Assembly: GCF_020733635.1 (NCBI RefSeq)
Contig: NZ_JAJFZL010000001.1
Coordinates: forward strand, 6,200,001-6,264,000
Origin: Nocardia spumae
Lineage (GTDB): Bacteria > Actinomycetota > Actinomycetes > Mycobacteriales > Mycobacteriaceae
Direction of reading: 5' to 3'
DNA: 64,000 nt
Of this stretch, positions 17,611 to 45,960 are shown one piece after another. The notes under the pieces are model-generated. The model was given only the letters and a program-made list of their open reading frames with translations, was not told where the DNA came from and did not search any database. Both the position numbers and the translations under genes were made by a program. How positions within the stretch are numbered: the stretch's first letter is position 1; each line of letters starts with the position of its first letter.

Positions 17611-17804
17611 ATCACACATCTCTCTTCACAAGGACTGCCGGCTCGGCCCGGGCCCACGCATCGGCATGCGGGCGCCGGCGGGACGGTCCGGCACCGCCCG
17701 GCCGTTGGCATCGGCCGGAACCGCCTCGGACGTCGCGCGGGCGCCCAACTGTTTGCACCCCAAGGGCATTCGATGTGCGCTGGGCGACACAGCGACTCCC
17801 TTAG

Positions 17805-29436: not shown

Positions 29437-31167
29437 TCAGGCGTCGACCAGGTGCCAGCCCGTGGCGCGCGACCGCTCGGACCAGAAGTGGGCGTAGCGC
29501 CCACCCAGATCGAGGAGTTCCACATGCGTGCCGCGTTCGAGGATCTGCCCGCCTTCGACGAACAGAATCTGATCGGCGTGGGCGATGGTGGACAGGCGAT
29601 GCGCCACCACCACGACGGTCTTGTCACGGGTCAGTTCGTGGATGCCGCGGACCACGGCGGCCTCACTGTGTGGATCCAGGGCGCTGGTGGCCTCGTCGAG
29701 CAGGATGATCGGAGCGTCCTTCAGCAGGGCGCGGGCGATCGAGACTCGTTGTCGCTCACCGCCGGACAGGGCGGCGCCACCTTCGCCGACGGCGGCGTCC
29801 CAGCCGTCGGGCAGTTGTTCCACGATCTCGTCCACCCGGGCGATGTCGGCGGCCCGGCGTACCTGCTCGTCGGTGGCGTCCGGGTTGCCGATGCGGATGT
29901 TGTCGAAGATGGTCTCGTTGAACAGGTAGACGTCCTGGAAGACCGGTGACACCTGGCGCAGCAGGGTTTCCGACGGCTGCCGCCGCACATCGTGGCCGCC
30001 GACGGTGATGGCGCCGGCGCCGACGTCGTAGAAGCGGGAGGCCAGCTTCAGCAACGTGGTCTTGCCGCCACCGGAGGGGCCGACGATCGCCGTCGTGGTG
30101 CCGGCGGGCACGGTGAACGAGACTCCGTCGATGACCTTCTCGCCCTCGCGGTAGCCGAATTCGACCTTGTCGAACACGATCTCGGGTGCACCGGGGGTCA
30201 CCGGTTCGGCGGCCTCGGCCAGATCGTGCTCGGCCAGGAAATCGGTGATGCGGTCGGCCGCATCACCGGCGCTGCGGATGGCGGTGCTCAGCTGCGCGGC
30301 ACGGTTGATCGGCTCGATGAACCGGGCCGTCACCGCGATCAGCGCGATGGTGGCGGGAATGGACAGCTCACCGCCGGTCCCCCGGGCCACGATCACTGCC
30401 ACCACGACCAGGAACACGACCTGCACACAGAGCGCGAACACCATCAGGCCGGGGACGCTGGCGGCGATCATCCGACGCGCGGCGCCACGTTGGTCTCGCA
30501 GCGCCCGGTCGAGGGCGCGGTTACCGGCACCGACCGCACCGAAGGCCCGCAGTACCGGCTGCGCCTGCGCGAATTCCACGACTCGCGAATTCGCTTCGGC
30601 CGCAGTGGCATCGAGCTGCCGATCGGCGCGGGTGTAGCTGTTGTTGGCCCAGCGGCTGACCAGCAGCAGAATCGGCAGGCTCACCAGCATGACCAACGCG
30701 ATCCGCCAGTCGATGAACAGGACGCCGATCGCGACGCCGACGGGAACGACAACCGCGGTCACCACCGGCGCGAGCAGATAGTTGACGACCCCCATGATCT
30801 CGCGCACACCGCCGACGACCATGCGCGAGATGGATCCGGAATTGGCGGTGGCGAACCAGCCCAGCGGCAAGGTGCTCAGATGGTCACCGAGGCTGGTCTG
30901 CACCCCGCGCATCATGCCGACGCCGATCCGCAGGCCCACCAGCAACTGCTGATAGGAGCACAGCGAGGCCACGATCACCGCGACCGCCAGCGATACGGTC
31001 CACTGCCACGCCCGCCCGAAATCGCCGTCGAACAGCGCCTGCAGGACGGGAATCAGCAGCAGGTACGACGCGATCTGACCCAACGCCCCGGCGCCGATCA
31101 GCGCCAGATAGCGCGGCACGTAGCGGCGCAGGTCCGGCGGGATGAGCGCGAAGATCTTCCTGATCAC
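29437..31167 (-). CDS. Half ABC transporter, permease-ATPase fusion (IrtB-like)
   Basis: This 576-residue protein has an exporter-fold membrane domain (about 15-310, six helices) and a nucleotide-binding domain with Walker A GPSGGGKTT, signature LSGGE and Walker B IILLDEAT. It starts at the GTG at 31167, which forms a GTGA overlap with the stop of the previous half-transporter; the two surely form a heterodimer. IrtAB of mycobacteria and YbtPQ of Yersinia are exporter-fold ABC proteins that import ferric siderophores. Operon position behind a siderophore-binding lipoprotein makes import the best guess; export cannot be excluded from sequence alone. Confidence 0.9.
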   Translation of the reverse strand: MIRKIFALIPPDLRRYVPRYLALIGAGALGQIASYLLLIPVLQALFDGDFGRAWQWTVSLAVAVIVASLCSYQQLLVGLRIGVGMMRGVQTSLGDHLSTLPLGWFATANSGSISRMVVGGVREIMGVVNYLLAPVVTAVVVPVGVAIGVLFIDWRIALVMLVSLPILLLVSRWANNSYTRADRQLDATAAEANSRVVEFAQAQPVLRAFGAVGAGNRALDRALRDQRGAARRMIAASVPGLMVFALCVQVVFLVVVAVIVARGTGGELSIPATIALIAVTARFIEPINRAAQLSTAIRSAGDAADRITDFLAEHDLAEAAEPVTPGAPEIVFDKVEFGYREGEKVIDGVSFTVPAGTTTAIVGPSGGGKTTLLKLASRFYDVGAGAITVGGHDVRRQPSETLLRQVSPVFQDVYLFNETIFDNIRIGNPDATDEQVRRAADIARVDEIVEQLPDGWDAAVGEGGAALSGGERQRVSIARALLKDAPIILLDEATSALDPHSEAAVVRGIHELTRDKTVVVVAHRLSTIAHADQILFVEGGQILERGTHVELLDLGGRYAHFWSERSRATGWHLVDA

Positions 31168-33077
31168 CGGAGTTCCCCTTCCACGTCGCGGACCGCCACC
31201 GGGGATTGCCCGAGCACCCCGATCGACGCCTCGTTCTGTTCCCACAACCGCTGATAGAGACCACCGGCCACCGACAGCGTCGCGTGCTCGCCGGACTCGG
31301 CGACGGCGCCGTTGTCCAGCACCAGAATGCGGTTCACACCGGTGATGGTGTGCAGGCGATGCGCGATCACCACTACCGTGCGCCCCGCGACCAGCACCGC
31401 GAGCGCATCCTGCACCGCGGCCTCCGATTCCGGATCGGCGAAGGCGGTCGCCTCGTCGAGTACCAGGATGGGGGTGTCGGCCAGCAGGGTGCGCGCGATC
31501 GACAACCGTTGCGCCTCACCGCCGGACAGCACCGCGTCGACACCGATCTCGGAGTCGTATCCGCGTGGCAGTTCCAGGATCCGATCGTGGATCTGCGCGG
31601 CGCGGGCGGCGCGTTCGATGGTCTCGGCATCGGCCTCCGGCCGGGCCAGGGCGATGTTCTCGCGGATCGTGCCGCGAATCATCCGCACATCCTGCAGGAC
31701 GAATCCCACGGTGCGGTAGAGCTCCTCGGTCGAGAAGTCCCGGACATCCCTGTCACCGATGGTGATGCGGCCGTCGGTGACGTCGTAGAACCGGGGCAGC
31801 AGCCGGGCCAGCGTGGACTTTCCGGAACCGCTCGGACCCACCAGCGCGGTGATCGTGCCGGGCGCGAGTTCGAAGTCGAGTTCCCGCAGCACCGTTCGAT
31901 CGGCGCGGTAGCCGAAGCTGACGTTCTCGAATCGCACCACCGGCCCGACCGGAGCCTCGGTCGCCGTCGCCGTCGCCGGCGCCGTCGCCGGGCCGCCGCC
32001 GGCGCGGGTCGCCAGTTCCGGGGTCTGCTGCAATTCGTGCAGTCGCAATGCGGCGGCGCCACCCTCACGCAGTGCCTGACCACCGAATCCGATGCCGAGC
32101 AGCGCACTGCCCAAACCGATTCCGAGCAGGAGGAACGGCAGGATGTCGACCGGATCCATCCAGCCGAGATCGGCGAAGCCGAGTCCGGCGACCACCACGA
32201 CCAGCATCAGCAGGACCGGGGTCAGCAGCAGCTCGGAGGCCGACTGCAACCTGGTCATCGGCGTCTTCCACGCCAGCAGGCTGTCTGCGGTGTTGTCGAC
32301 CGCGCGCTGGTAGGTGCTGTGCGCCTTGCGGGCCCGGCCGAACGCCCGCACCACCTGAATTCCGTCGACGAATTCGATGATGGACTGCTCGATGGTGCGC
32401 TCGTGGTTGTTGAAGACGGCGAACCGCGCCTGATGGTCCTTGCCCATCATGGCCGCCAGGCCACGGGTGTAGAGCACCAACGGCACCAGCAAGATCAGGG
32501 TCAGTCGCCAGTCGACGGTGAAAAGGTAGATCAGCGCGACCAATTGGACGGTCACCGCACCCACGAATTCCAGCCGCGCATGCGCCACCAGATAGTGCAG
32601 TGCCTCCACATCGTCCTGCAGGAACTTCTTGACCTCGCCGGAACTGCGGTCGGTGAACCAGCCCAGCGGCACCCGGGTCAATTTGGCGGCCAGCAGCTGT
32701 CGCAGGCCGAGCTGGAAGGAGGCGTCGACCGCGTGTGTCCACACCAGCGCCACCACCTGCAGCAGTCCGCGCAGCACCAGCACGAGGACCGCCGCGATCA
32801 CCAGCCACCACACCCGGCCGGTATCGATCGGCGTGGACAACAGTGCGCGGCAGGCCTCGACGATGAGGACGAACGGGACCACCGAGCAGATCGACGACAG
32901 CACGATCACGAGACTCGCTCCGGTCAGCGTGCCGTTGACCGGTCGCAGGACCTGTTTGCGCGCGAGGCCGTCGGCACGCTTCTGCTGTTTGCGCGCCACC
33001 CGATCCGGCTGTAGCGGTTCGGCCTGGTCCGCGGCGCGCTGCCGCGACTCGACCGGCTCGGCGGTATCGACCGTCAT
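31164..33077 (-). CDS. Half ABC transporter, permease-ATPase fusion (IrtA-like without SIP domain)
   Basis: This 637-residue protein has a charged cytoplasmic N-terminus of about 45 residues, a six-helix membrane domain (about 48-340) and, after an Ala/Thr/Pro-rich linker (about 360-378), a nucleotide-binding domain. The last shows Walker A GPSGSGKST, signature LSGGE and Walker B ILVLDEAT. The start has gggaggg upstream. It follows the C-A-T-E NRPS by 46 bp in the same operon. Compared with mycobacterial IrtA it lacks the N-terminal siderophore-interaction domain, which is encoded separately at 27699-28397. Confidence 0.9.
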   Translation of the reverse strand: MTVDTAEPVESRQRAADQAEPLQPDRVARKQQKRADGLARKQVLRPVNGTLTGASLVIVLSSICSVVPFVLIVEACRALLSTPIDTGRVWWLVIAAVLVLVLRGLLQVVALVWTHAVDASFQLGLRQLLAAKLTRVPLGWFTDRSSGEVKKFLQDDVEALHYLVAHARLEFVGAVTVQLVALIYLFTVDWRLTLILLVPLVLYTRGLAAMMGKDHQARFAVFNNHERTIEQSIIEFVDGIQVVRAFGRARKAHSTYQRAVDNTADSLLAWKTPMTRLQSASELLLTPVLLMLVVVVAGLGFADLGWMDPVDILPFLLLGIGLGSALLGIGFGGQALREGGAAALRLHELQQTPELATRAGGGPATAPATATATEAPVGPVVRFENVSFGYRADRTVLRELDFELAPGTITALVGPSGSGKSTLARLLPRFYDVTDGRITIGDRDVRDFSTEELYRTVGFVLQDVRMIRGTIRENIALARPEADAETIERAARAAQIHDRILELPRGYDSEIGVDAVLSGGEAQRLSIARTLLADTPILVLDEATAFADPESEAAVQDALAVLVAGRTVVVIAHRLHTITGVNRILVLDNGAVAESGEHATLSVAGGLYQRLWEQNEASIGVLGQSPVAVRDVEGELR

Positions 33078-33123: not shown

Positions 33124-36100
33124 TCATACCCGGCCCGCGAATTCGGGCGCCGCGAACTCGCTCAGCACGGCCCGCCAGCGCTCGGCGCGCTCATCGGCTC
33201 CGGCCTCGTCGAGCACCGCGGAGTTCATATCGAACACCGCCACGAGTGACGGTCCGGAATCCCGGGCCACCACAGCGGTATTCACATCGATGGTGAACCG
33301 GAGCGGCAGATCGGGATGGACGGCGATACCGAATTCGGCGCTGAGATCCGACAGCGGCACCGGCGACCAGGGGCCACTGCCGAACCGCAGGACGTCGAAC
33401 CGGCCCAAATGATTGAGCCGGATCTGCCCGCGAGCGGCGAATGTGCGCTCCGCCAGCAGTCCGGGTCCCGACTCCGGCGTCCAAGCCGCGAGCTCGGCCG
33501 CCGGTACCAGCACCGTCTCCTCGACGGTGAACCAGCCCACCCGGCGGGTGTCGTCATCGGGTGCGCGGCCGTGGGATTCGCGGGTCACCGCGATCCGGCC
33601 GGACTCGTCACCGGTATCGGAGACCAGTCGCGCGCAGGCCGTCAACAGCAGTTCTTCCAGTGCCGCACCGGTTTCCGAACACCGCCGCAGCAGTGCCTCG
33701 GTGATCTCGGGGCCCAGATCCACCGTGCGGTGGATCGCCCGGCCCGCCCGGTCGCGACGCGGATCGGTGAATCGGCCCGACAGCGGCGCACCCAGGGTCG
33801 GCGGAACAGGAGCGGCCGGTGTCGTCACCGGCTCGCCCGGAATCTCGTTCAGCGGCAGCTGTCCCTGCCCCATCCGCCGCAGATCGTCGACCAGAATCAG
33901 CCAGGACACCACATCCACCGCGAGGTGGTGAATCGACAGCACCAGGCGTGGCCGCGGTCCCGCGAGCAGGGTGGCGGCAACCATCCGGCCCGTGTCCGGG
34001 TCCAGACGGCGCACGGTGTCGGCCAGCTGCTGTGTCGCACCGGCACTGTCGTCGTGCTCGTCGACCACCACGAGCAGTTCGGCCACGCTGGAGGTCTCAC
34101 CGGTGATCAGCACCGGACCGCCCTCGGCATTCGCCGCCACGCGTGAACGCAAGCTCGGATGTGCGGTGGCCAGCGCCTCCAGCCGTTCGATCACCGCGGC
34201 CGCGGTGGTGTCGGCGTCGAGCGAAATGACCTGTGACTGAGCGAGATAGCGGTAGTCGCCGTACGAGATGATCTCGTGTGCGAGCGGAGTCAGCGGCAGC
34301 ACGGTCCCGGCCGCGGTCACCTCGGCGACGGTTTCCGCCTCGTCCGCCGGCTGGTCCAGCCGCCGGGCCAGATCACGAAGATCGGCCGACGCCAGCACCT
34401 CTCGCGCGGAGACGTGATAACCGCTACCGCGCAACCGGGACACCAGATCGATGACGCCGATACTGTCGATTCCCAGATCGACCAGGCTGTCGAGGATGCC
34501 CACCCGGGGATCCGGGCCCGCCTCACCGCCGGTGCTCATCGCCGCGATCAGCGCGAGCAGACTGCGTTCGGTATCGGTCCGTGGTCGCGCCGCGTCGCCG
34601 GTGACCGCCGGCCGGGCCAGCAGTGCCGTGGCCGCGTGCACATCGAGTTTGTCGTTGCGGTTCAACGGAATCTCGTCGACTCCGACGATCCGCGTGGGTA
34701 CCAGGAATTGCGGCAGCCGCCGCGCGAGTTCCGATCGGATGCCCGCGATCGGCCGATCGCCGACGACCAGCGCACCGAGCCGGATGCGTCCGTTATCGGT
34801 GAAGGCCAGCGCCGCCGCATGTCGTACTCCGTCGAGTTCGCGCAGTACGACGCTCACCTCGTCGGGTTCGACCCGGTAGCCGTTGATCTTCACCTGGGTG
34901 TCGACGCGGCCTTCGTAGGACACCGTGCCGTCTGCCGCGCGACGCACCAGATCGCCGGTGCGATAACGCCTTTCCCCCGCGGCACCGGCGACGAAGGCCG
35001 CCGCGGTCGTGCCGGGGCGCGCCAGATACCCGAGTGCGAGTTGCGGGCCGGACAGATACAACTCCCCCTGTCCACCCGGCGGCACCGGCCGCAGCCGATG
35101 GTCCAGGACGTGGGCGAGCATCGCGTCGAACGGCCGCCCGATGGTCGGAGCGGCATGATCGTGCACATCGGCCATCAAGGCCTCGACCGTGGTCTCGGTG
35201 GGACCGTAGAAGTTGATCACCCGCGTCGTAGGCAGCCCCCGCAGACGCCGCCAGGTATCCGGGCTGATCGCCTCGCCGCCGAGCGCCAGAATCGCGAGCG
35301 GACAGGATTCCACGCCGTCGCGGGTGCGGAACAGCCCCGCGGCGATCAGGCGATTGAGCATCGACGGGGAGGTGTCGAAGATATCGATGCCGAATTCGTC
35401 GATGGCACCGACGATCCGCTCGGCATCGGTGCGCACCTCGTCGCCGAGCAGCACGACGGTATGCCCGCTGAGCAGAGCGACCGTCGGCTGCCAGGCCGCG
35501 TCGAAACCGGTCGACCACCCGTGCCCGATCCGCAGCGCGCGACCGATCGCGGCCGAGGTGGGGGCGAAGATCCGGCGTTCGTGATTGGACCAGTGGTCGA
35601 GCAGCGCGCGATGCGGAATCGCGACGCCCTTCGGGCGGCCGGTGGTTCCGGAGGTGAACACGACGTAGAAGGGGGCATCGGGAAGGCCGCGGGGGCGCTG
35701 GTTCGCGAGCGGATCGGCACCGCCGCCCACGCCGTTGCCATCGACATCGGCACCGCCGCCCACGCCGTTGCCATCGACATCGGCATCGCCATCGCCATCG
35801 GCATCGGCATCGACATCGACATCGGCATCGGCATCGGTGAACCGGAGGCGACCGGTGTCGTCGGGTACGCCGTGACGGCAGCGCACTCCCTGCTCCCGCA
35901 CCTGCGCGAGCACGTCGGCGCGATCGGCATCGGCCAGCACCACACGGGCGCCGCTGGTGGCGAGCAGATAGGCCACCCGGTCGGCGGGGGTGGCCGGGTC
36001 GACGTGCACGCAGGTCGCACCGGCCGCCCCGACCGCGAAGGGCGCGTGCAGCACCCGGCGATCGCGCGGGAGCATGACGGCGACGGCATCGCCCGCGCGC

Positions 36101-37623
36101 ACGCCACAGGATCGGATTTCCGCGGCCAGAGTGCCTACCGCGGCGCCGAATTCGGCATAGGTATGGGTACCGCGCGCATCGACGACCGCGATGTTCTCCC
36201 GTGCCGCGTCGACCGCCGAGAACAATGCCTCCGGAACCGTCCGGAATCCGCGGTCCGCAGCATCGTGAGTACTCGCGCTCGTGTCCGCGGGGGGCGCTGT
36301 CGTCGTGGTGGCCGTCAGCACGGCGGGTTCGTCCGGGAGCAGCACATCGACCGCACCGCAGGTCTCGGCGGCGATGATCCGCGAGGCGACCGCGAGCACC
36401 CGGCGCGCCATCCGATCCGGATCGAAGGTGGTCAGCACATCGGGGCGGGTCTCGACCCGGCAGATCAGCTCGCCGTTCTCCAGCACCGGCACGATCGCGA
36501 GCGGATAGTGGCTCGGGGAGTCGACGCGGCGCGGGGTCAGCGTCGCGCCGCCACCCATCGGCATCGCGGCGGTCACCGAACCGGTGGGCGAGTTCTCGAA
36601 CACCAGCAGGGTGTCGAACAGCTGCCCCCCACCGGCCTGGCGGGTGATTTCGGCGATGCCGAGATATTCGTGCGCTCGCGTCCGGGCGACCGTGCGCTGC
36701 AACAGCGCACCCACCTCGGCGGGTGCGCGATCGTCCATGCGCACCCGGACCGGAATGGTGGTGACCAGAGCGCCGACCAGACGTTCGGCATTCGGCAGTG
36801 AGGCGTCGCGGCCGGAGGTGGTCTGGCCGAACACCACGTCGTCGCGGCCGGTGAGACCGGAAAGAATACGGCCCCAAGCCAATTGGAGCACCGTGTTGAG
36901 GGTCAGCCCGTGGCCGCGCGCCCACGAGGTGAGCGCCTCGGTGGCGGCGCGGTCGAGCCGGGCCTCACCGATGTTCGGCAGATCGATATCGACCGGAGCG
37001 GGCGGTCCGATCATCGGCATCGGCACCAGGCCGTCGAGCGCCTCGGCCCAGGCGCGGGCCGAGGCCTGCGTGTCACGGGTGGCGAGCCAGGCGGCGTGTT
37101 CGCGCAGCGGCGGAGCGGGCGGCAGGGCCGCGCCGGCTCCGCTGTGCAGGGCGATCAGATCGGAGAACAGCAACGGGATGGACCATCCGTCGACGACGAT
37201 GTGGTGTGCGGTGCACACCAATTCGTAGTCGTCGTCGGCGACCCGGGCCGCCACCACCCGGAACAGCGGGCCCCGGTCCAGGTCGATGCGACGCCGCGCC
37301 TCGGCCCAGTACAGGTCTCGCGCCGCCGCATCCGGATCGCCGGACTCGCGCAGATCCACCTCGCGCCAGCCGATCCGGCCGTCGGAGGTGACGACGAGCA
37401 CCGGATGCGGCACATCCTCGGCGAGCACCGCGGCACCGAGGTGCGGATACCGCTCCAGCACCCCGTCGAACGCCCGCCGCAGCGCGGCGAGATCGGTGAG
37501 CCCCTCCACTCGTACCGCGAAGGTGACCAGGTAGGGGTCCACGCCCTCCGACAGCGAGCTGACCGTATACAAACCGCGCTGCAACGGTGAGAGGGCGATG
37601 ACGTCGAGGATTCGGGTACTCAC
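33124..37623 (-). CDS. Siderophore NRPS, C-A-T-E (MbtF-like terminal module)
   Basis: This 1499-residue protein, close to the length of MbtF, has condensation (about 8-430; HHIVVDGWS), adenylation (about 460-975; VFTSGTTGRPKG, A10 lysine in NDKLD), carrier (LGIDS) and an epimerase/condensation-type end domain (HHLAVDVVSW, VGWFTVEE, LNHLGRF). No thioesterase is present. In mycobactin the corresponding enzyme adds the second lysine, and release is by closure to the caprolactam. An Asp-rich insertion at about 596-637 lies just before the A3 core. My reading of the specificity residues (D-A-Q-D-A-G-F-V-E) is tentative and not obviously lysine. It starts at a GTG overlapping the C*-T gene stop (GTGA). 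Confidence 0.92.
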   Translation of the reverse strand: MSTRILDVIALSPLQRGLYTVSSLSEGVDPYLVTFAVRVEGLTDLAALRRAFDGVLERYPHLGAAVLAEDVPHPVLVVTSDGRIGWREVDLRESGDPDAAARDLYWAEARRRIDLDRGPLFRVVAARVADDDYELVCTAHHIVVDGWSIPLLFSDLIALHSGAGAALPPAPPLREHAAWLATRDTQASARAWAEALDGLVPMPMIGPPAPVDIDLPNIGEARLDRAATEALTSWARGHGLTLNTVLQLAWGRILSGLTGRDDVVFGQTTSGRDASLPNAERLVGALVTTIPVRVRMDDRAPAEVGALLQRTVARTRAHEYLGIAEITRQAGGGQLFDTLLVFENSPTGSVTAAMPMGGGATLTPRRVDSPSHYPLAIVPVLENGELICRVETRPDVLTTFDPDRMARRVLAVASRIIAAETCGAVDVLLPDEPAVLTATTTTAPPADTSASTHDAADRGFRTVPEALFSAVDAARENIAVVDARGTHTYAEFGAAVGTLAAEIRSCGVRAGDAVAVMLPRDRRVLHAPFAVGAAGATCVHVDPATPADRVAYLLATSGARVVLADADRADVLAQVREQGVRCRHGVPDDTGRLRFTDADADVDVDADADGDGDADVDGNGVGGGADVDGNGVGGGADPLANQRPRGLPDAPFYVVFTSGTTGRPKGVAIPHRALLDHWSNHERRIFAPTSAAIGRALRIGHGWSTGFDAAWQPTVALLSGHTVVLLGDEVRTDAERIVGAIDEFGIDIFDTSPSMLNRLIAAGLFRTRDGVESCPLAILALGGEAISPDTWRRLRGLPTTRVINFYGPTETTVEALMADVHDHAAPTIGRPFDAMLAHVLDHRLRPVPPGGQGELYLSGPQLALGYLARPGTTAAAFVAGAAGERRYRTGDLVRRAADGTVSYEGRVDTQVKINGYRVEPDEVSVVLRELDGVRHAAALAFTDNGRIRLGALVVGDRPIAGIRSELARRLPQFLVPTRIVGVDEIPLNRNDKLDVHAATALLARPAVTGDAARPRTDTERSLLALIAAMSTGGEAGPDPRVGILDSLVDLGIDSIGVIDLVSRLRGSGYHVSAREVLASADLRDLARRLDQPADEAETVAEVTAAGTVLPLTPLAHEIISYGDYRYLAQSQVISLDADTTAAAVIERLEALATAHPSLRSRVAANAEGGPVLITGETSSVAELLVVVDEHDDSAGATQQLADTVRRLDPDTGRMVAATLLAGPRPRLVLSIHHLAVDVVSWLILVDDLRRMGQGQLPLNEIPGEPVTTPAAPVPPTLGAPLSGRFTDPRRDRAGRAIHRTVDLGPEITEALLRRCSETGAALEELLLTACARLVSDTGDESGRIAVTRESHGRAPDDDTRRVGWFTVEETVLVPAAELAAWTPESGPGLLAERTFAARGQIRLNHLGRFDVLRFGSGPWSPVPLSDLSAEFGIAVHPDLPLRFTIDVNTAVVARDSGPSLVAVFDMNSAVLDEAGADERAERWRAVLSEFAAPEFAGRV
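35717..35836. repeat. Tandem 33-bp and 6-bp repeats inside the A domain
   Basis: Two identical 33-bp units (35717-35749 and 35750-35782) encode DVDGNGVGGGA twice. They adjoin nine hexamers of the form ncatcg (35783-35836) that encode alternating Asp with Ala, Gly or Val. All periods are multiples of three, so copy changes keep the frame. The segment lies in the loop before the ATP-binding A3 motif. Confidence 0.92.
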
Positions 37624-39341
37624 CGGGCAGCGAACTTCCCGGCCACTGCCCGCAGCGCCGCGGGGTCCAGACCGGAGGCGCTCATGGGGGCGACCGCGGC
37701 CGGTTCGGCGGCCTGCTCCTGCCCCGGTTCGGCCGCGACCAGCCGCGACGCCATCTCACGGACGGCCGGGAATTCGAACACGTGCTGCACATCGAGGGTG
37801 TAGCCACGCTCACCCAGCAGCGTCACCAGCCGCAGTGCCGCGATGCTGTCACCGCCCAGGGAGAAGAAGGTGTCGGACCGGCCCACCGGATCGTCGGAGT
37901 CCAGATCCAGGACCTCGCGAATACCCTCGGCGAGTAGGCGTTCGGCGTCGGTCTCGGGTTCACCACCCAGTCCGGTCATCCCGGCGTAGGCGGCGTCGAA
38001 GCGCTCGAACAGCGTCGGGACCTCGCCGGCGCCGATCGGCAGCGAATCATCCGGCGCCGCCGCCCATTGCGCGAACCGCTGCTCGAAAGCCTGTGTGATC
38101 GCATCGATTTCGGGCCTGCCCGCCATCTTCGCGGGGAAGTCGACGGTCACCGTCGCGTCGCCGTCGCCGGTGACGATATCGACGACGATATCCGCGCCGT
38201 GCGGACGCGCGACGCGGCGCTCCAGTTCCCGCACCGAGAGCCCGGCGGTGGGCTCGGTGCGGACGTTGACCAGCGCCTGGAAGGGCACCCCGTCGGCGAC
38301 CGCGACCGCGCCGCGCAGTTGATGAGTCAGCCGCTCGATCCGGGTACCGGCATGCGAGCGGGCCGCGACGGCGAGATCGGATACGGCGGTGACGAGCGCA
38401 CGCGGGGTGCGGGCCGAGGCCGTATCCACCCGCAGCACCAGATAATTGGCGTAGGCGCCGAACGCGACGGCGTCGTCGGCACGGCCGGCGTCGACGATGC
38501 CCACCGCGACGTCGGCTCCCAGACCGGCTTCGGCCAGCACCGTGGCCAGCACCGCGGTAGTGGCCGCTTCGAGATCCGCGGCGCCGGTCAGCGCGGCGAC
38601 CACGTCGGCCGGCAGCCGCAGCGTGCGCCGCGCGGACGCCGGAACATCCTGCCCGGCAGCGCTGTCGGAGCCGGCCCCGGCGCCGCTCGAGGAGACCACG
38701 ACGGCCGCCCGCTCGGGCAGGCCCGCGAGGCACTCCAGCCAGTAGCCCAGTTCACCGTCGTCGGCGGCATTTCCAGCGAGCGTCTTGACCTGCGCGAGCG
38801 CATGGGCGCGGTACTGCCGAACCGAGTCGGCGGCAGCGGTATCGGCGCCCAGCAGTTCCGCGATGAGCACATCGACCGTGCGGTCGTCCGCGGCGATCGG
38901 ATGTACGGCGATCGACAGCACCGCACCCGTTGCCGACCGGTACAGCCGCAGCCGAACCGGGAGATCGGCGGTCAGGTCGAACCGGTGCGCGGCATCGGCG
39001 CGCAGTGCCGCCGCGAGGTCGTCGCCGGGGGCGAGATCGACCACCTCGAGCACCGACTCGGGCGCGTCGGCGACCCGCTGATACGGAATGCGGCGATCGG
39101 CCGGGTACACCGTCCGCAGGATCTCGTGCCGGGACAGCGTCGCTACCGCCGCGCGGCCGAGCTCCGTCACATCGATATCACCGGTGATCTCCAGTGCGGC
39201 CGAGAGATTGGCCGCCGGTGTGCCGCGCAGCCGTTCGGGCAGCAGGGCGGCCTGCTGCGCCGGCGACAACGGCACCCCCCGGCCGCCGGAGCGTGGTTCC
39301 GCACCCGGCCCGGCTGTGTTGAATACGGACGAGTCAGACAT
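37620..39341 (-). CDS. NRPS fragment C*-T: degenerate condensation domain plus carrier, no A domain
   Basis: This 573-residue protein has a condensation-fold domain (about 20-440) whose catalytic HHxxxDG reads HPIAADD (147-153), so the second His is Pro and the Gly is Asp. A carrier domain with LGGDS follows near 500, then an Ala/Pro/Gln tail. No adenylation domain is present, so the carrier must be charged in trans. The ATG at 39341 lies 10 bp after the lipoprotein stop, and the gene overlaps the C-A-T-E NRPS by 4 bp. The frame is intact and tightly coupled, which argues against a decayed remnant. It has no counterpart in the mycobactin pathway. Confidence 0.85.
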   Translation of the reverse strand: MSDSSVFNTAGPGAEPRSGGRGVPLSPAQQAALLPERLRGTPAANLSAALEITGDIDVTELGRAAVATLSRHEILRTVYPADRRIPYQRVADAPESVLEVVDLAPGDDLAAALRADAAHRFDLTADLPVRLRLYRSATGAVLSIAVHPIAADDRTVDVLIAELLGADTAAADSVRQYRAHALAQVKTLAGNAADDGELGYWLECLAGLPERAAVVVSSSGAGAGSDSAAGQDVPASARRTLRLPADVVAALTGAADLEAATTAVLATVLAEAGLGADVAVGIVDAGRADDAVAFGAYANYLVLRVDTASARTPRALVTAVSDLAVAARSHAGTRIERLTHQLRGAVAVADGVPFQALVNVRTEPTAGLSVRELERRVARPHGADIVVDIVTGDGDATVTVDFPAKMAGRPEIDAITQAFEQRFAQWAAAPDDSLPIGAGEVPTLFERFDAAYAGMTGLGGEPETDAERLLAEGIREVLDLDSDDPVGRSDTFFSLGGDSIAALRLVTLLGERGYTLDVQHVFEFPAVREMASRLVAAEPGQEQAAEPAAVAPMSASGLDPAALRAVAGKFAAR

Positions 39342-39351
39342 GCCTAATCCC

Positions 39352-40356
39352 TTACTTGGCGACGTTCGCGAGCGTCGGTTCGAGCTTGCCGAGCACATAG
39401 GGCACCGACAGCGCCGTGGGCAGGTTGATGGCGTTGATCGTGGCCATGTCGACGAACGAGATGCCCCCCTGGCGCACCGACGGCAGATCGGCGTAGCCCG
39501 GCAGCTGAGTGAACTTCTCCTGCAAGCCCGGAGCGGCGCCGCACACCAGCAGATCCGAAGTCAGATCGCCGAGCCGTTCCGGCGACAACGCCAACCGACC
39601 GCCCGAGGGCGCCTCGGCCACCAGCTTCTCCGGCATGGTCATACCGAGCCGGATGAAGGTCTGCGCGGAACCGTCCTTGGGATCGGCCAGCACCATCAGC
39701 TGCGTCGGCGTGGTGAGCATGCAGGTCAGGAAGGTCTTCCCCGTCAGCTTGGGGTATTTCGCCGCGACCGCGTCGATCTTGCCGTCCACGTCCGCGACGA
39801 CCTTGCGGGCCGCGTCCTCCTGGTGCAACGCCTTGCCCAGCGCGGTCACCTCGTCCTGCCACGGATCGATCTGGGCGGAACCGATACTGCCGATGGTCGG
39901 CGCCAGTTTCGACAGTTTGTCGTACATGGCCTTGTCCATCAGATAGTTCGGGGCCACGATGAGATCCGGCTCCAGCGCCGCGATCTGTTCGACCAGGTCG
40001 CCGCCGGCGGTGAGGGACTTCGCCCCCTCGAGTTGCGCGGGCTGAATCCACGGCGCGGAGGTGGTCGGCCCGGCACCCGGGATCAGATAGCCGACCGGCT
40101 TGACGCCCAGCGCCACAGCGGTTTCCACCCATTGGTTACCGATGGCCACCACGCGCTTCGGAGTGCCCTCGATCTGGGTCCGCCCGAGGCTGTGATCGAT
40201 GGTCACCGCGGCACCGGAATCCGTGGCGTCGTCGCTCGATCCACACGCGACCGCGGTGGCGGCCACGCCGAATGCCATCACGACCAGACCCGCCCGCCGC
40301 AGGGCGGTGCGCAGGCGCACGCCGGTGCGGCGCGCGGAAGCTCGATCTCGATTCAT
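39352..40356 (-). CDS. Ferric-siderophore-binding lipoprotein (FecB/FepB-type)
   Basis: This 334-residue protein has a signal peptide and the lipobox VA-C (TAVAC-GSSDD), followed by the periplasmic-binding fold of the FecB/BtuF class: TPKRVVAIGNQWVETAVALGVKPVGY, EPDLIVAPNYL and a C-terminal VPYVLGKLEP. It should catch the iron-loaded siderophore outside the membrane and hand it to a permease. It leads the operon lipoprotein, C*-T, C-A-T-E, two half ABC transporters, with an iron box about 75 bp upstream. I chose the ATG at 40356, with aaggag 8 bp upstream; an ATG six codons earlier lacks one. No FecCD-type permease lies in the window. Confidence 0.93.
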   Translation of the reverse strand: MNRDRASARRTGVRLRTALRRAGLVVMAFGVAATAVACGSSDDATDSGAAVTIDHSLGRTQIEGTPKRVVAIGNQWVETAVALGVKPVGYLIPGAGPTTSAPWIQPAQLEGAKSLTAGGDLVEQIAALEPDLIVAPNYLMDKAMYDKLSKLAPTIGSIGSAQIDPWQDEVTALGKALHQEDAARKVVADVDGKIDAVAAKYPKLTGKTFLTCMLTTPTQLMVLADPKDGSAQTFIRLGMTMPEKLVAEAPSGGRLALSPERLGDLTSDLLVCGAAPGLQEKFTQLPGYADLPSVRQGGISFVDMATINAINLPTALSVPYVLGKLEPTLANVAK

Positions 40357-40428
40357 GACGTCAACTCCTTGCACTTCACACTCCGCCGCGCGCGGGGCAC
40401 CGCGGCGATCATCCGATCTTCGAAGATC

Positions 40429-40447
40429 GTAGCTTAGGCTAAGCTAA
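40429..40447 (-). promoter_or_regulatory. Iron box of the lipoprotein-NRPS-ABC operon
   Basis: Gtagcttaggctaagctaa matches 16 of 19 positions and is itself nearly a perfect palindrome. Next to it is a separate perfect 16-bp palindrome, cgatcttcgaagatcg (40414-40429), which may be a second operator. Confidence 0.8.
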
Positions 40448-40469
40448 TATCGATCGGGAGGGAACCCGC

Positions 40470-43400
40470 TCAGTAGACTTCGACCGGCGCCTGGTGCACG
40501 GTGCGCACCTCCACGCGGGTCGCCAAGCCCGACACCGTCGGGTTGTCGAAAAGCTCACGGACACCGATTCGCACGCCGAATTCGCTGCGAACCCAGGCCA
40601 GCAACCGCACCGCCAGCAGCGAGTGCCCGCCCAATTCGAAGAACGAATCATCGGCGCCGATGCGCTCGCGGCCGAACATCTGCCCGAACATCTCCGCGAT
40701 CCTGGCCTCGACCGCCGTGCCCGGATCGCGGAACAACTCCGCACCGGCGAGCTCGGGCCGCGGCAGCGCGCGGCGATCCAGCTTTCCGTGTTCGGTCAAC
40801 GGGATCTCGCCGATGATCGCGAACGCCGCCGGAACCATGAAGCGCGGCAACACCGCCGCGGCATGAGCACGCACCGCGTCGACATCCACCACGGCGACCC
40901 CCGGCGCCGCGACGAGGTAGGCGGCCAGCACCGATCCGATCACGGCATCGGAAACCGCGGCGGCCACACACTGGCCCACATCGGGATGGCCGGCCACCGC
41001 CGCCTGGACCTCGGCCAGTTCGATCCGATAACCGCGCACCTTCACCTGGTCGTCGGCGCGCCCCAGGAATTCGAGTGCACCGTCACCGTTGCGACGCGCC
41101 AGATCACCGGTGCGATACAACCGGCCGCCGGGGGTGAACGGATCGGCCACGAAACGCTCGGCGCTCGCGCCGCCGCGATGCAGGTACCCGCGCGCCAATT
41201 GGCTTCCGCCCAGATAGATCTCGCCGGCCGCGCCGGTGGGCACCAGCCGCAATCGCTCGTCGAGCAGATACAGGTGGACATTGCGGTTGGGGTAGCCGAT
41301 CGGGACGATCCGGGTGCCCTGCGGCCCTTCGACCGTCAGATGAGTGGACGAGACCACCGCCTCGGTCGGCCCGTAGTGATTGCGCAGTTCGGCGTCGAAG
41401 TGACCGAGGAAGCGGTCGGCGACCTCGCCGTAGAGCGCCTCCCCGCCGACGGGTACGTGTCGCAGCGCACGCCAGCCGCTCACCTCGGGCAGCATCAGCA
41501 GCGTGCTGAGCAGCGACGGCACCATATGCAGCACCGTGACCCCACAGCGCGAGATCACCTCGGCCACATAGGGAATGTCGTCGAAGGCATCGGATTTGGG
41601 CACCACCAGGCAAGCGCCCAGGGTGAGCGTCACGAAGACGTCGAGCAGGGAGGCGTCGAATCCCACCGACGACGATTGCAGCAGCCGATCCGAGGCGGTC
41701 ATATCCCACTGGGCGCAGAACCCGTCGAGGTGTTCGGCGATCGCGGCATGGGATACCGGTACGCCCTTGGGCATTCCGGTCGATCCGGAGGTGTAGATCA
41801 CGTAGGCCAGGTGGGCGGGCCGCAGCGGCCGCACCCGGTCGGCATCGACGGGATCGTGGTCGGGCAGCTCCGCGGCGGCGGCTTCGGCCGCCCGCAGCTC
41901 CGCGATGCCGTACACGGCCACCGGCCGCGCGTCGGACAGCAGGAACTCGGCGCGGTCGGCCGGATACGCCGGATCGATGGGCAGATACGCGGCACCGGAT
42001 TTCAGCACGGCCAGGACACCGATGACGAACTCCACCGACGTGCCCAGATGCAGCGCGACGATGTCCTCGGCGCCGACACCCTGCCCGATCAGCCGGTGTG
42101 CCAGCCGATTCGCGCGCTGGTTCAACTCGCCGTAACTCAGTTCGAGATCCGTATCGGGTGCGGCCACCGCGATGGCGCCGGGGTTCGCGGCGACCCGCCG
42201 CTGGAACAGCTCGACCACTGTCGTCTGCGGTACGTCGACCAGCTCACCGTGCGACAGTTCCAGGATCGTCTCCCGATCCCGGCTGCCGAAGATGTCGAGT
42301 TCACCGATGCGACGCCGCGGTTCGCGTACCGCGCTGTCGAGGACCCGCAGGTAGTGACCGAGAAAACGGTCGACGATCCGCGCATCGAATTCGTCGGCCT
42401 GATAGACGATCTCGACCCGGGCACGCCCCGGATCGGTGACGACGGTGAGCGACAGCGGCGTCCGCGTGGTGGGGTTGCCCAGCTCGACCGATTCGGTGTG
42501 GATACCGTCGAACTCCGGGCTCACACCGCGACGCACACCGAATTCCATGCGCGCCAGGAGTTCCAGGCCGTCGCGGCCGCCGGTCCGTTCCGGATTGAGT
42601 GCGGCGACCACGCGATCGATACCGGCCCGGCGCCGTTCGAAGGCCGCGGTGACCCGTTCATCGACGGTCCGGACGTAGGTGTCGACCGCGGCGGCCGGAT
42701 CCAGGACCGACCGCACCAGCAGGGTATTGCCGAAATAGCCGATGCCCGCGGTATCGGCCGCGGTCCGCGTCGAGGCGGGCACGCAGACCAGGAAGTCGGT
42801 GGCGGCGGTGTAGCGATGGACGAGCACGTCGTAGGCGGCGAGCAGAACGGAGAAGGTCGTGGTCGAAGCCGCCCGGGCGAACGCCTCGACCCGCTCCCAG
42901 GTCTCGGCCGGTAGTTCGGCCACGGTGCGCGCGGTCCGCAGGGTGGCCGCGACCGCGGGCGCGATCCGGCCCGGCAGTTCGACCGGCTGCGGCAGCGGGG
43001 TCAGTGCGTCCCGCCAGAAGCCCAGGTCCGCATCGGATTCGCGCTCGGCCACCGCGACCGGCGGCAGCGGCGGCAAGAGCTGTCCGTTGTACCGCGCACC
43101 GAGTTCGGCACAGAACGGTTCCCAGGACTGCTCGTCCCAGCCGATGGCGTGCACCACCAGCGCGAGGACGTAGGCCCGCGCCCCGGTTCGAATCACCGTG
43201 CAGCGCAACGGAGTTTCGACGGTGAGGTCGAACGGCCGTCCGGCCTCCCGGCGGATGAGCACCTCGACCCGCCGATCGCGGCCGGCCTCCGGGAGCTCCC
43301 GCAGGTCGACCTCCTGCCACGCGGGCGCGGCGGTCGGGCGGATCACCCGGCGCGGCTCGTCGTCACCGTCGCAGCAGTAGGTACTGCGCAGCATCTCGTG

Positions 43401-43550
43401 GCGCGCGACGATATCGGCGACCGCGGCCCGCAGCCGTTCGACGTCCAGCGCACCGTCCAGCCGGTAGACCGCGCAACTGTTGAGTGTGGTGTCCTCGGGA
43501 TCGCGGGTCTGCAGGAACCAGATGCGGCGCTGAGCCGCCGACAGGGACAT
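40470..43550 (-). CDS. NRPS C*-A-T with degenerate condensation motif
   Basis: This 1026-residue protein has an N-terminal condensation-fold domain (about 1-440) whose HHxxxDG motif reads HAIGWDE (134-140), so the catalytic second His is Ala and the Gly is Glu. An adenylation domain (about 455-940; YTSGSTGMPKG, A10 HGKLDR) and a carrier (LGGHS) follow. My reading of the specificity residues is D-A-L-H-P-G-H-V-S, which I cannot assign. The ATG overlaps the formyltransferase stop (TGATG), so the two are co-translated. That suggests this module activates or handles N-formyl-N-hydroxylysine or a precursor. A longer open frame upstream lies inside the formyltransferase gene and was rejected. Confidence 0.9.
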   Translation of the reverse strand: MSLSAAQRRIWFLQTRDPEDTTLNSCAVYRLDGALDVERLRAAVADIVARHEMLRSTYCCDGDDEPRRVIRPTAAPAWQEVDLRELPEAGRDRRVEVLIRREAGRPFDLTVETPLRCTVIRTGARAYVLALVVHAIGWDEQSWEPFCAELGARYNGQLLPPLPPVAVAERESDADLGFWRDALTPLPQPVELPGRIAPAVAATLRTARTVAELPAETWERVEAFARAASTTTFSVLLAAYDVLVHRYTAATDFLVCVPASTRTAADTAGIGYFGNTLLVRSVLDPAAAVDTYVRTVDERVTAAFERRRAGIDRVVAALNPERTGGRDGLELLARMEFGVRRGVSPEFDGIHTESVELGNPTTRTPLSLTVVTDPGRARVEIVYQADEFDARIVDRFLGHYLRVLDSAVREPRRRIGELDIFGSRDRETILELSHGELVDVPQTTVVELFQRRVAANPGAIAVAAPDTDLELSYGELNQRANRLAHRLIGQGVGAEDIVALHLGTSVEFVIGVLAVLKSGAAYLPIDPAYPADRAEFLLSDARPVAVYGIAELRAAEAAAAELPDHDPVDADRVRPLRPAHLAYVIYTSGSTGMPKGVPVSHAAIAEHLDGFCAQWDMTASDRLLQSSSVGFDASLLDVFVTLTLGACLVVPKSDAFDDIPYVAEVISRCGVTVLHMVPSLLSTLLMLPEVSGWRALRHVPVGGEALYGEVADRFLGHFDAELRNHYGPTEAVVSSTHLTVEGPQGTRIVPIGYPNRNVHLYLLDERLRLVPTGAAGEIYLGGSQLARGYLHRGGASAERFVADPFTPGGRLYRTGDLARRNGDGALEFLGRADDQVKVRGYRIELAEVQAAVAGHPDVGQCVAAAVSDAVIGSVLAAYLVAAPGVAVVDVDAVRAHAAAVLPRFMVPAAFAIIGEIPLTEHGKLDRRALPRPELAGAELFRDPGTAVEARIAEMFGQMFGRERIGADDSFFELGGHSLLAVRLLAWVRSEFGVRIGVRELFDNPTVSGLATRVEVRTVHQAPVEVY

Positions 43551-44491
43551 CACTGTGGTGCGTCGGTGAGATACCCGCCGCGCACGAAGAATTCGGCCGC
43601 GTCGCGCTCGGTTCCGTCGGCGGTGCGGACGCGGGTGATCAACAGGCCGAGGTTGCCGCCCCGATGGGCGTCCGGTCCGCAGATCACCACGCCGCCCCCC
43701 TCCTGGACCACGACCCGGCCGGGGGTGCCGCCGTAGCGCGCCCGCGACAGCGCGGCCGCGACGATCTCGACCTTCTCCCCGCGGTAGTACGAGAACGCCC
43801 GCGGATACGGCTCCGACAATGCGCGCACGAACCGTTCGAGATCGACCGCGTCCCACTGCCAGTCGATGCGGCTGTCACGTTCGGAACGCTTGTGGAAGTA
43901 GGTCCGTTCGGCCTTGTCCTGCGGACGCCACACCGCGGTGCCGGATTCGATCGCCGACAACGCCTCGTGCACCGCGCCGGGAATCAACTCCATGCCCGCG
44001 AGCACCAGTTCGGTACCGGTGGCGGTCGGGCCGATCGGCAGCGAACGCTGGACGATGATGTCGCCGGTGTCGAGCTGTTCGTCCATCCGATGCACGGTGA
44101 GGCCGAATTCGGACTCACCGCTGATCAGCGCCCACAGCACCGGGGAGAACCCGGTGAACTTCGGCAGCAGCGAATCGTGCAGGTTCACCGTGCCGTGCCG
44201 CGGCATCAGATACAGCTCCGGCGGCATCCAGGTGTACCAGCTGTTCACCACGATGATGTCGGGTTCGGCCCGCTTGACCAGATCGATGGTCTCGGCGTCG
44301 GCCCGTTCGGTCAGATGAACCGGGATCCCGTGTTCGCGGGCCAGTTCCTCCACCGAATCCGACCAGATGCCCTTGTAGGCGTGCTCACTGGCCGGATGCG
44401 TCACCGCCAGCACCACCTCGTGTTCCGAATCGATCAGAGCCTGCAGCGTTTTCCGACCCCAGGTCTGATAACCGAACGACACGATACGCAT
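43550..44491 (-). CDS. N-hydroxylysine formyltransferase (methionyl-tRNA formyltransferase-like)
   Basis: This 313-residue protein has the N10-formyl-tetrahydrofolate transferase fold. Asn103 and His105 in VNLHDSLLP, with the Asp of LDTGDII (141-144), form the catalytic set of the Fmt/ArnA family. It is shorter than and unlike housekeeping Fmt in its C-terminal region, and resembles siderophore formyltransferases that make N-formyl-N-hydroxy-ornithine or -lysine. It sits between the lysine N-hydroxylase and an NRPS, with an iron box directly upstream. It would put a formyl group on the hydroxylamine made by NbtG, where mycobacteria use the acyltransferase MbtK. No MbtK-like gene is seen in the window. 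Confidence 0.9.
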   Translation of the reverse strand: MRIVSFGYQTWGRKTLQALIDSEHEVVLAVTHPASEHAYKGIWSDSVEELAREHGIPVHLTERADAETIDLVKRAEPDIIVVNSWYTWMPPELYLMPRHGTVNLHDSLLPKFTGFSPVLWALISGESEFGLTVHRMDEQLDTGDIIVQRSLPIGPTATGTELVLAGMELIPGAVHEALSAIESGTAVWRPQDKAERTYFHKRSERDSRIDWQWDAVDLERFVRALSEPYPRAFSYYRGEKVEIVAAALSRARYGGTPGRVVVQEGGGVVICGPDAHRGGNLGLLITRVRTADGTERDAAEFFVRGGYLTDAPQ

Positions 44492-44551: not shown

Positions 44552-45841
44552 TCAGCGCGGTCCGGCCACTCCGGCGACGCGCCCCGCGCCGACCGCCGAA
44601 TGCGCCGGGACGCCACCGAGTACGCGATCCGAAAGTTCGCCCAGGCAGCTGAGATTCGGGAATCCCGGCCCCTGCGCCATCCCCGACAGGTTGGGCAGAT
44701 ACAACTTCGCGTCCAGCCCCGCGACCGCCAGATCGTGCCCCATCGACGCCTCCAGCCGGCCCTGGGTGATGGGACCACCGACGGCCAGCTCCACCAGATC
44801 CGCGGCGTCGGAGTCGAACAGGTCCAGGAACCACAGCGGCTGACCGCCGGTGGCGTCGACCACCAGATCGAAGGCGTGCAGCTGATCGGGGCGACGCTCG
44901 TTGCGCAGCGTGAGCGAGACCCCGTCGCCGCGTTCGGCCACCCGCACCACCCGGCCCTGCAAATGATGAACGCGATTGTCCGCCAGCACGTTCTCCTGCA
45001 CCCGCACCGAGAACACACCGCGATCGGTGCGGCGGATGACATCGCGACGCTCCTGCAGACTCAGTGCCCGCCACTTCGCCGGATCACTGAACAGCGAGTT
45101 CTCGAAATAGCTCTCACCGCGGGTGTAGATGGTCGCGCCCGGTGAGATCACCGAGACGGTCAGCACATCGTGGCGCACCAGCTCATCGACCGCGGATCCG
45201 GCGGTCTCACCACCGCCGATGACCGCGGCCCGCGAGGACACCGGCAACCGGCGCTTACCCGCCAGATCCCAGAACTCGGCGATACTCAGCACTTTCGGGT
45301 GCTGCGCGAGCGCCCGGCGGCTGTTGCCCGGCCCGGTGATCATCAGACCGTCGGTATCGATCTCCGTCTCGACCCCCTGGGAGTCGGCCACCGCGACCAG
45401 CCAGCCGTCGGCCGCCGCACGCACGCGGCGCACGGTGCCGAGCACGATCTCCACTCCGGACTTGCGCGCCACCCACTGCAGATAGTTGGCCCAGACGTGA
45501 TGGTGCGGACTCGGCCGGCCCCGGTCCACCCACTCGGCATAGGTGCCGTTCTCCACCAGGAAGGAGTGCCAGCTGTAGGCGACCATCTCACGGTCGATAT
45601 CGCGGTTGCGGCCGCGGGCCCAGGTGGAGTGATACGGGAAGCCGACATCCTTCTCCGGGCTGGTGCCCAGCCGGTGCTGGCCGTCGGTCCAACCGCCGCT
45701 GGGCAGCCAATTGCCACCTACCGCATGGGATTCCACCACCACCACGCGGGGCGCGGCTATGCCCAGGTCGCGCAGCACCCGTGCCTTCGCCGCCACTGCC
45801 ATCGCCTTAGGTCCGGCTCCGACCACGAGAAGCGTCTTCAC
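44552..45841 (-). CDS. nbtG: L-lysine N6-monooxygenase (MbtG-type)
   Basis: This 429-residue flavoprotein hydroxylates the side-chain amine of lysine to make the hydroxamate precursor. Near the N-terminus is the FAD motif VVGAGPKAMA, in the middle the NADPH motif VIGGGETAGS. Further family stretches are SGGWTDGQHRLGTSPEKDVGFPY, here split by position, and the C-terminal LSGMAQGPGFPNLSCLG, which M. tuberculosis MbtG also shows. The GTG at 45841 has gggaga 5 bp upstream and starts right at the Rossmann fold. The iron box at 45961-45979 lies in the divergent gap upstream. N. farcinica nbtG is likewise reported to have its own IdeR site. Confidence 0.95.
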   Translation of the reverse strand: MKTLLVVGAGPKAMAVAAKARVLRDLGIAAPRVVVVESHAVGGNWLPSGGWTDGQHRLGTSPEKDVGFPYHSTWARGRNRDIDREMVAYSWHSFLVENGTYAEWVDRGRPSPHHHVWANYLQWVARKSGVEIVLGTVRRVRAAADGWLVAVADSQGVETEIDTDGLMITGPGNSRRALAQHPKVLSIAEFWDLAGKRRLPVSSRAAVIGGGETAGSAVDELVRHDVLTVSVISPGATIYTRGESYFENSLFSDPAKWRALSLQERRDVIRRTDRGVFSVRVQENVLADNRVHHLQGRVVRVAERGDGVSLTLRNERRPDQLHAFDLVVDATGGQPLWFLDLFDSDAADLVELAVGGPITQGRLEASMGHDLAVAGLDAKLYLPNLSGMAQGPGFPNLSCLGELSDRVLGGVPAHSAVGAGRVAGVAGPR

Positions 45842-45960
45842 TGGTTCTCCCGTTCTGTGATTCCAGCCACCGCACACCCGGCACCGAGTGCGCTCAGCTG
45901 CACATATCCGACATACCGGGAGTCGATACCCACCGCATTGCCGATTCAGCGCTACCTACC

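What the first reader, a model, noticed from the sequence alone, without database searches (positions are those of the whole stretch)
37620..43550. Two extra NRPS proteins with inactivated condensation motifs inside a mycobactin/nocobactin-type locus
Seen: the C*-A-T protein reads HAIGWDE and the C*-T protein reads HPIAADD in place of HHxxxDG; both lack the catalytic second His. Known: a mycobactin-type pathway needs only the MbtB, MbtE and MbtF NRPS types, and those are already present (24027-27551, 17880-23984, 33124-37623). Inference: the extra pair may serve as an amino-acid loading and carrier platform, for example holding lysine for hydroxylation and formylation before transfer, rather than as an extension module. 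It could also add a residue, giving an undescribed siderophore.
Basis: partly seen in the sequence, partly recalled or inferred. Interest (0 to 1): 0.85.

Follow-up and report, generated by a model that had tools for sequence, protein, structure and literature searches.

The report
Lysine synthetase module with silenced joiners
An enzyme that normally joins a lysine into an iron-scavenging molecule has lost its joining residues but kept its lysine-loading parts, and the same loss recurs in many related bacteria, so it looks like an assembly-line module reused as a loading platform.

Summary
The motifs are real (HAIGWDE, HPIAADD), but the two proteins are not the extra ones. This layout is published for four nocobactin subfamilies, whose tested strains make two-lysine nocobactins (PMC7413640); three of those very strains carry both lost histidines. 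I found no report of that loss. Full-length NbtD keeps both C-domain histidines in 52 of 52 loci read (39 Nocardia, 13 other genera); 57 loci (56 Nocardia, 1 Gordonia) have lost the first. Specificity code and carrier serine are kept, and C1 alone evolves faster. The tree needs at least three changes; the lysine monooxygenase and formyltransferase genes sit upstream in 44 of 57 silenced but 7 of 52 intact loci. Thirteen genomes keep a silenced module without C-T or C-A-T-E-C. Best reading: a condensation-silent loading platform for formyl-hydroxylysine, with joining here probably taken over by C-A-T-E-C. An added residue is not supported.

The parts
40470..43550 (-). C*-A-T protein, NbtD/MbtE-type lysine module with silenced condensation domain (1026 aa)
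   Evidence: Pfam; 58% identity to full-length NbtD over 1025 aa; A code DALHVVHVS as in NbtD
43131..43151 (-). HAIGWDE motif: second His of HHxxxDG replaced by Ala
37620..39341 (-). C*-T didomain protein, homologue of NbtD's terminal C-T (573 aa); stop overlaps the start of the C-A-T-E gene
38883..38903 (-). HPIAADD motif: second His replaced by Pro
17880..23984 (-). C-A-T-E-C protein (QHIAWDG, HHLVVDG, HHMLLDG): the truly added NRPS, C1 and A paralogous to those of NbtD; proposed to have taken over the joining steps
43550..44491 (-). formyltransferase (TerH type), directly upstream of C*-A-T
   Evidence: Pfam Formyl_trans_N/C; linkage count
44552..45877 (-). lysine N-monooxygenase (NbtG/MbtG type)
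   Evidence: Pfam Lys_Orn_oxgnase; linkage count
39352..40356 (-). siderophore-binding lipoprotein (Peripla_BP_2) between the two NRPS genes
40429..40447 (.). IdeR/DtxR-type iron box in front of the binding-protein/C*-T/C-A-T-E operon
   Evidence: 3 mismatches to a recalled consensus; 4 such sites in the window, 0 in 100 shuffles
33124..37623 (-). C-A-T-E protein, NbtE/MbtF type (A code DAQDLLFVE)
24027..27551 (-). T-Cy-A-T protein, NbtF/MbtB type
12481..17619 (-). thioesterase, ketosynthase and AT-KR-T polyketide genes of the nocobactin pathway
29437..33077 (-). two ABC transporter genes

Best explanation
C*-A-T is the NbtD lysine module and C*-T a homologue of its terminal C-T didomain. Shown by sequence: both C domains lack the catalytic histidine while the A-domain code and carrier serines are kept; a C-A-T-E-C protein whose C1 and A are paralogues of NbtD's accompanies the C*-T gene. 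Inferred: C-A-T-E-C now makes the bond from the salicyl-oxazoline to the central lysine and the following ester, and epimerises that lysine. Inferred: C*-A-T activates N6-formyl-N6-hydroxylysine made by the adjacent monooxygenase and formyltransferase and holds it as a loading/carrier platform, its silent C domains remaining as docking scaffolds. Inferred: C*-T, translationally coupled to the C-A-T-E gene, still serves as a carrier for the acyl or depsipeptide intermediate.
For: C1 His lost in 57 aligned loci and present in 52; C2 is HH in 52 of 52 of the latter. C*-T occurs in 43 and C-A-T-E-C in 44 of 148 genus genomes, the same 43 plus one 88%-complete genome. A code unchanged (37 of 40 split loci DALHVVHVS, 3 DALHVVHVC; full-length 11 of 20 one of these two, the rest differ by one or a few positions). 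C1/A distance slope 2.31 in silenced against 1.66 in intact Nocardia modules, T/A 1.27 against 1.25; C1 dN/dS 0.45 against 0.39. C-A-T-E-C C1 is sister to NbtD C1 (0.999) and its A to NbtD A (SH-aLRT 91, long branches). NMO and FMT genes upstream in 44 of 57 silenced and 7 of 52 intact loci. Same-strain chemistry shows two lysines only. Window genome has one NbtD-type match. Six genomes with the silenced module have no orthologue of the nocobactin ketosynthase.
Against: The second His is not essential in every C domain (PMC11546977, passages). C-A-T-E-C has its own A-T, so why C*-A-T is kept is not explained. Thirteen genomes have silenced modules without C-A-T-E-C, so takeover cannot be the only cause. 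In 4 relatives (L078-L081) the E motif of C-A-T-E-C is degenerate. Two silenced modules keep HH in a residual C2 (L088, L090). More than one origin is only weakly supported (p-AU 0.031) and the linkage correlation has three independent pairs (p 0.25). No biochemistry.
Confidence: 0.55

Rival explanations
1. The C* domains still condense without the second His (substrate positioning), and C*-A-T remains the true central lysine module; C-A-T-E-C serves another purpose such as a stereochemical alternative.
For: Loss of this His is tolerated in some C domains (PMC11546977 passages). The first His and the Asp are kept in all 57 silenced rows. C1 dN/dS is well below 1 (0.45). Silenced modules persist in 13 genomes without C-A-T-E-C.
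Against: Both C domains changed together in the split lineage, C1 is relaxed relative to A and T, the second C domain is heavily degenerate in several relatives (DRFVADE, DRLVADD), and a paralogue with intact motifs is at hand.
Confidence: 0.22
2. C* acts like the X domain of glycopeptide synthetases: a non-catalytic scaffold that docks the lysine monooxygenase and formyltransferase on carrier-bound lysine.
Against: Shared fold and motif show no function; many ordinary C domains score higher in Z. C* groups with NbtD C1 in the trees. NbtG is listed as acting on lysine (PMC7347517 table), so carrier-bound modification is not required. Docking untested.
Confidence: 0.15
3. The pair are decaying leftovers without a role.
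For: C1 is relaxed; second C and A copies degenerate in relatives; L091 lacks a readable C*-T C motif.
Against: Open reading frames in 43 genomes; A and T as constrained as in intact NbtD, A dN/dS 0.24 against 0.26; kept where the rest of the pathway is gone.
Confidence: 0.05
4. The pair adds a further residue, giving an undescribed siderophore.
For: The cluster encodes four A domains where nocobactin needs three.
Against: Strains with the same silenced pair make two-lysine products by MS/MS; an extension module needs a working C domain.
Confidence: 0.03

Closest known systems
NbtD of the N. farcinica nocobactin NA pathway (C-A-T-C-T; MbtE type)
   Same: Orthologous C-A-T (58% identity), same A code; C*-T matches its C-terminal C-T
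   Different: Split over two genes; both C domains lack the catalytic His that full-length NbtD relatives keep (52 of 52 loci).
Nocobactin-like BGC subfamilies II, VI, VIII, IX (PMC7413640)
   Same: Discrete C-T didomain plus C-A-T-E-C plus formyltransferase; same genes in named strains of all four
   Different: The paper's text does not mention the histidine loss (0 hits for histidine or inactive) and assigns C-A-T-E-C no function
X domain of glycopeptide antibiotic synthetases
   Different: C* groups with NbtD C domains; different place in the assembly line; docking of an oxygenase untested

Membership tests
NbtD/MbtE lysine module | Orthologous C-A-T with the NbtD specificity code | tested here: met
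   58% identity over 1025 aa; code DALHVVHVS; A-T tree nests it among NbtD
NbtD/MbtE lysine module | Single C-A-T-C-T polypeptide | tested here: not met
   C-A-T and C-T on separate genes; C*-T is a sister paralogue of NbtD C2 in the tree
NbtD/MbtE lysine module | Active-site HHxxxD in C1 and C2 | tested here: not met
   HAIGWDE and HPIAADD
Catalytically competent C domain | HHxxxDG with second His | tested here: not met
   Ala and Pro at that position; activity itself not tested
Nocobactin-like subfamilies II/VI/VIII/IX | Discrete C-T protein, C-A-T-E-C protein, formyltransferase, nbtF in the same cluster | tested here: met
Nocobactin-like subfamilies II/VI/VIII/IX | Makes a two-lysine, formylated nocobactin-type siderophore | not testable with these tools
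   Reported for relatives; not for this strain
X domain | C fold lacking the catalytic His | tested here: met
X domain | Groups with X domains by descent | tested here: inconclusive
   Groups with NbtD C domains, but no X-domain sequence was put in the tree
X domain | Recruits an oxygenase to a carrier-bound substrate | not testable with these tools
   Only gene linkage seen

The most novel reading that the evidence does not exclude
The lysine monooxygenase, formyltransferase and C*-A-T form a portable cassette in which a condensation domain has repeatedly been turned into a non-catalytic, X-domain-like scaffold on a loaded carrier. It works with C-A-T-E-C in nocobactin lines and, on its own, in undescribed siderophore pathways of other species.
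Probability: 0.2. Interest if true: 0.8.

Novelty: new variant of a known kind. Interest (0 to 1): 0.58.

Why it matters
It would explain why about 30% of the Nocardia genomes searched (44 of 148 with C-A-T-E-C) carry more lysine-type modules than their siderophores need, which the 2020 survey left open. It offers matched intact and silenced modules on which the debated role of the second C-domain histidine, and the reuse of C domains as scaffolds, can be tested. It also warns genome-mining tools not to count these modules as extension steps.

Tried and rejected
Pair as an addition to MbtE: rejected, since C*-A-T is itself the NbtD/MbtE orthologue.

C*-T as simply the broken-off end of NbtD: softened. 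Nine relatives have a residual C2 on the C*-A-T protein as well as a C*-T gene, and the tree makes C*-T a sister paralogue on a long branch.

A stand-alone C domain like C1 of C-A-T-E-C in G144 and G018 as proof of trans action on C*-A-T: dropped, because G067 and G095 have the same stand-alone C and no C*-A-T match. It belongs to another siderophore-like cluster.

Takeover by C-A-T-E-C as the sole cause of the loss: rejected. Thirteen genomes with a silenced module have neither C*-T nor C-A-T-E-C among the strong hits: G144, G018, G088, G003, G096, G108, G014, G103, G140, G092, G099, and the silenced copies of G070 and G134. The ketosynthase was sought in the first six only.

Central D-lysine as proof of the E domain of C-A-T-E-C: only suggestive. 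Brasilibactin A is D and nocobactin NA is L at that place, but amamistatin A is D too and I do not know its cluster type.

Literature: searches in the held open-licence library listed no paper that I recognised as reporting the histidine loss; most hits were seen as listings only. Passages were read of PMC7413640 (plus part 1 of 2 of its section 10), PMC11546977 and PMC7347517, and parts 1-2 of 3 of PMC8978914. The original nbt paper was not available. Fold search covered C*-T only; C* was folded but not searched. Search of solved structures for C*-A-T gave general NRPS modules.

Not read or dropped: 25 of 133 genus matches to C1-A-T were not fetched (open frames 1681-2271 aa, the full-length size). 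L255 is truncated and G042's copy lies on a contig not fetched. One search left out loci under 800 bits (L155, L185, L257-L267), whose motifs are. The tree used 89 of 109 rows (those with 93% identity or more to a kept row removed). C-domain rows include pieces of the wrong domain (17 of 55 for C1, 19 of 56 for C2), not counted.

Full report
What was checked. The window lies at C1:6200001-6264000 of a 7.07 Mb genome whose relatives by name are Nocardia. The two proteins of the finding are real minus-strand genes. C*-A-T (40470-43550) shares one base with the stop of the formyltransferase gene. C*-T (37620-39341) overlaps the start of the C-A-T-E gene at 37623. A siderophore-binding lipoprotein gene (39352-40356) lies between them with an iron box in front. 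HAIGWDE and HPIAADD keep the first His and the Asp and replace the second His by Ala and Pro.

What the pair is. A survey of Nocardia (PMC7413640; passages, part 1 of section 10, term search) gives N. farcinica NbtD as C-A-T-C-T. It describes four subfamilies with a discrete C-T protein and an extra C-A-T-E-C protein without an assigned role. The window has that layout.

Histidine census. Of 148 genus genomes (window's included) the discrete C*-T is found in 43 and a C-A-T-E-C orthologue in 44: the same 43 plus G122, which is 88% complete. The gap to the next hits is wide (59% or more identity against 37%). In 20 full-length loci C1 and C2 both read HH. In 41 split loci plus the window C1 has Ala, Thr or Ser. 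Of 43 C*-T rows 42 are readable: 41 Pro, 1 Ser; the GGDS carrier motif is in all 63 rows of that alignment. With further loci (L157) the alignment holds 52 HH loci (39 Nocardia, 13 of other genera) and 57 without (56 Nocardia with the window, and Gordonia effusa), after dropping truncated L255. Eleven more partial Nocardia loci are HH. L185 (G154, another genus of the family) reads HRICWDE. In the HH loci C2 is HH in 52 of 52. Where a silenced module still has its own C2, 17 of 19 are silenced as well; L088 and L090 are the exceptions. 25 of the 133 matches were not read.

How often it happened. On a tree of the A-T part, without C1, the main silenced group (38 rows) is one branch (SH-aLRT 99) among HH rows. 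L253/L254 (HRICWDD) sit inside a second HH branch, and Gordonia effusa is a third, on a long branch. Starred branches force three changes. Holding all silenced rows together is rejected weakly (p-AU 0.031). The monooxygenase and formyltransferase genes lie within 2.5 kb upstream on the same strand in 44 of 57 silenced loci. Of the other 13, eight show the formyltransferase and then run out of sequence, three (L082, L249, L254) show the monooxygenase only, and two (L253, L256) show neither with 1.1 kb or less of flank. In HH loci both are there in 7 of 52 and one in 1. Three independent comparisons mostly go the same way, too few for significance (median p 0.25).

Without the rest of the pathway. 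Thirteen genomes have a silenced module without C*-T or C-A-T-E-C; G070 and G134 among them also have a second, full-length-size NbtD match (G134's was read and is HH). For six of the thirteen the nocobactin ketosynthase was sought and no orthologue found (best hits 41-46% against 66-91% in two genomes with the pathway). In G154 the unit is C*-A-T, monooxygenase, formyltransferase and what looks from its translation like a siderophore-interacting reductase; nothing else in the 18 kb read matched the NRPS/PKS query set.

Who does the joining. C1 of C-A-T-E-C is sister to NbtD's C1 (0.999) and its A to NbtD's A (SH-aLRT 91, with a long-branch warning); its second C groups with NbtE's C (0.998). 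Motifs: QHIAWDG in 37 C1 rows, HHxxxDG in 37 C2 rows (one of them an NbtE-like protein, L104), HHLxVDG in 31 of 37 E rows; the E motif is degenerate in L078-L081. The window genome has one NbtD-type match. Named strains with the layout were read directly: N. elegans NBRC 108235, N. brasiliensis IFM 10847 and NBRC 14402, N. jejuensis NBRC 103114, N. rhamnosiphila NBRC 108938, N. cyriacigeorgica CNM20110624; all six lack the second His in C1 and in C*-T. For three of these same strains (N. elegans, N. jejuensis, N. rhamnosiphila), and for N. cyriacigeorgica GUH-2, the survey predicts two-lysine nocobactins from MS/MS. The simplest account is that C-A-T-E-C has taken over condensation of the central lysine and C*-A-T no longer condenses. 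Brasilibactin A is described with a D and nocobactin NA with an L central lysine, in line with the E domain, but amamistatin A (D) does not settle it.

Limits. The role of the second His is debated and its loss is tolerated in some C domains (PMC11546977 passages). Why an A-T platform is kept beside C-A-T-E-C's own A-T is unexplained. NbtG is listed with lysine as substrate (PMC7347517 table), so on-carrier hydroxylation is not required. The survey's own text does not mention the histidines, and my searches found no other report (calls listed under Tried and rejected). No chemistry was done here.

Noticed in passing
L192:174-18196 (G144), L187 (G018), L195 (G067), L197 (G095): A different siderophore-like cluster: T-Cy-A-T, stand-alone C 54-61% identical to C1 of C-A-T-E-C proteins, Lys/Orn N-monooxygenase, PLP decarboxylase, penicillin amidase, T-Cy-GNAT; resembles what a nocardichelin pathway would need (recalled).
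   Followed up: partly
L176:15769-16821, L177:3020-4072, L178:3279-4331, L179:15702-16751; tails of L068, L074, L085, L088 C*-A-T proteins: A shortened adenylation-like piece, fused behind C*-A-T in some relatives and a separate gene of about 350 aa beside the monooxygenase in others, well conserved between species.
   Followed up: partly
L185:7142-14150 (G154, another genus): Lone unit of C*-A-T (HRICWDE), monooxygenase, formyltransferase and a siderophore-interacting-like protein: possible minimal siderophore locus.
   Followed up: partly
window 12395, 17805, 27662, 40429: Four iron-box-like sites at gene starts of the cluster, none expected by chance.
   Followed up: partly
G110, G134, G070: Genomes with both a silenced C*-A-T and a second NbtD-type gene of full-length size.
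   Followed up: no
L157 (Gordonia effusa), L155 (Antrihabitans cavernicola): The C*-T gene outside Nocardia; G. effusa has the whole set including C-A-T-E-C.
   Followed up: partly
window genome C1:1079394-1129004: A very long NRPS open frame of 16,830 aa.
   Followed up: no
window 48758-50719 (+): 653-aa ORF without a Pfam match at E 0.001.
   Followed up: no
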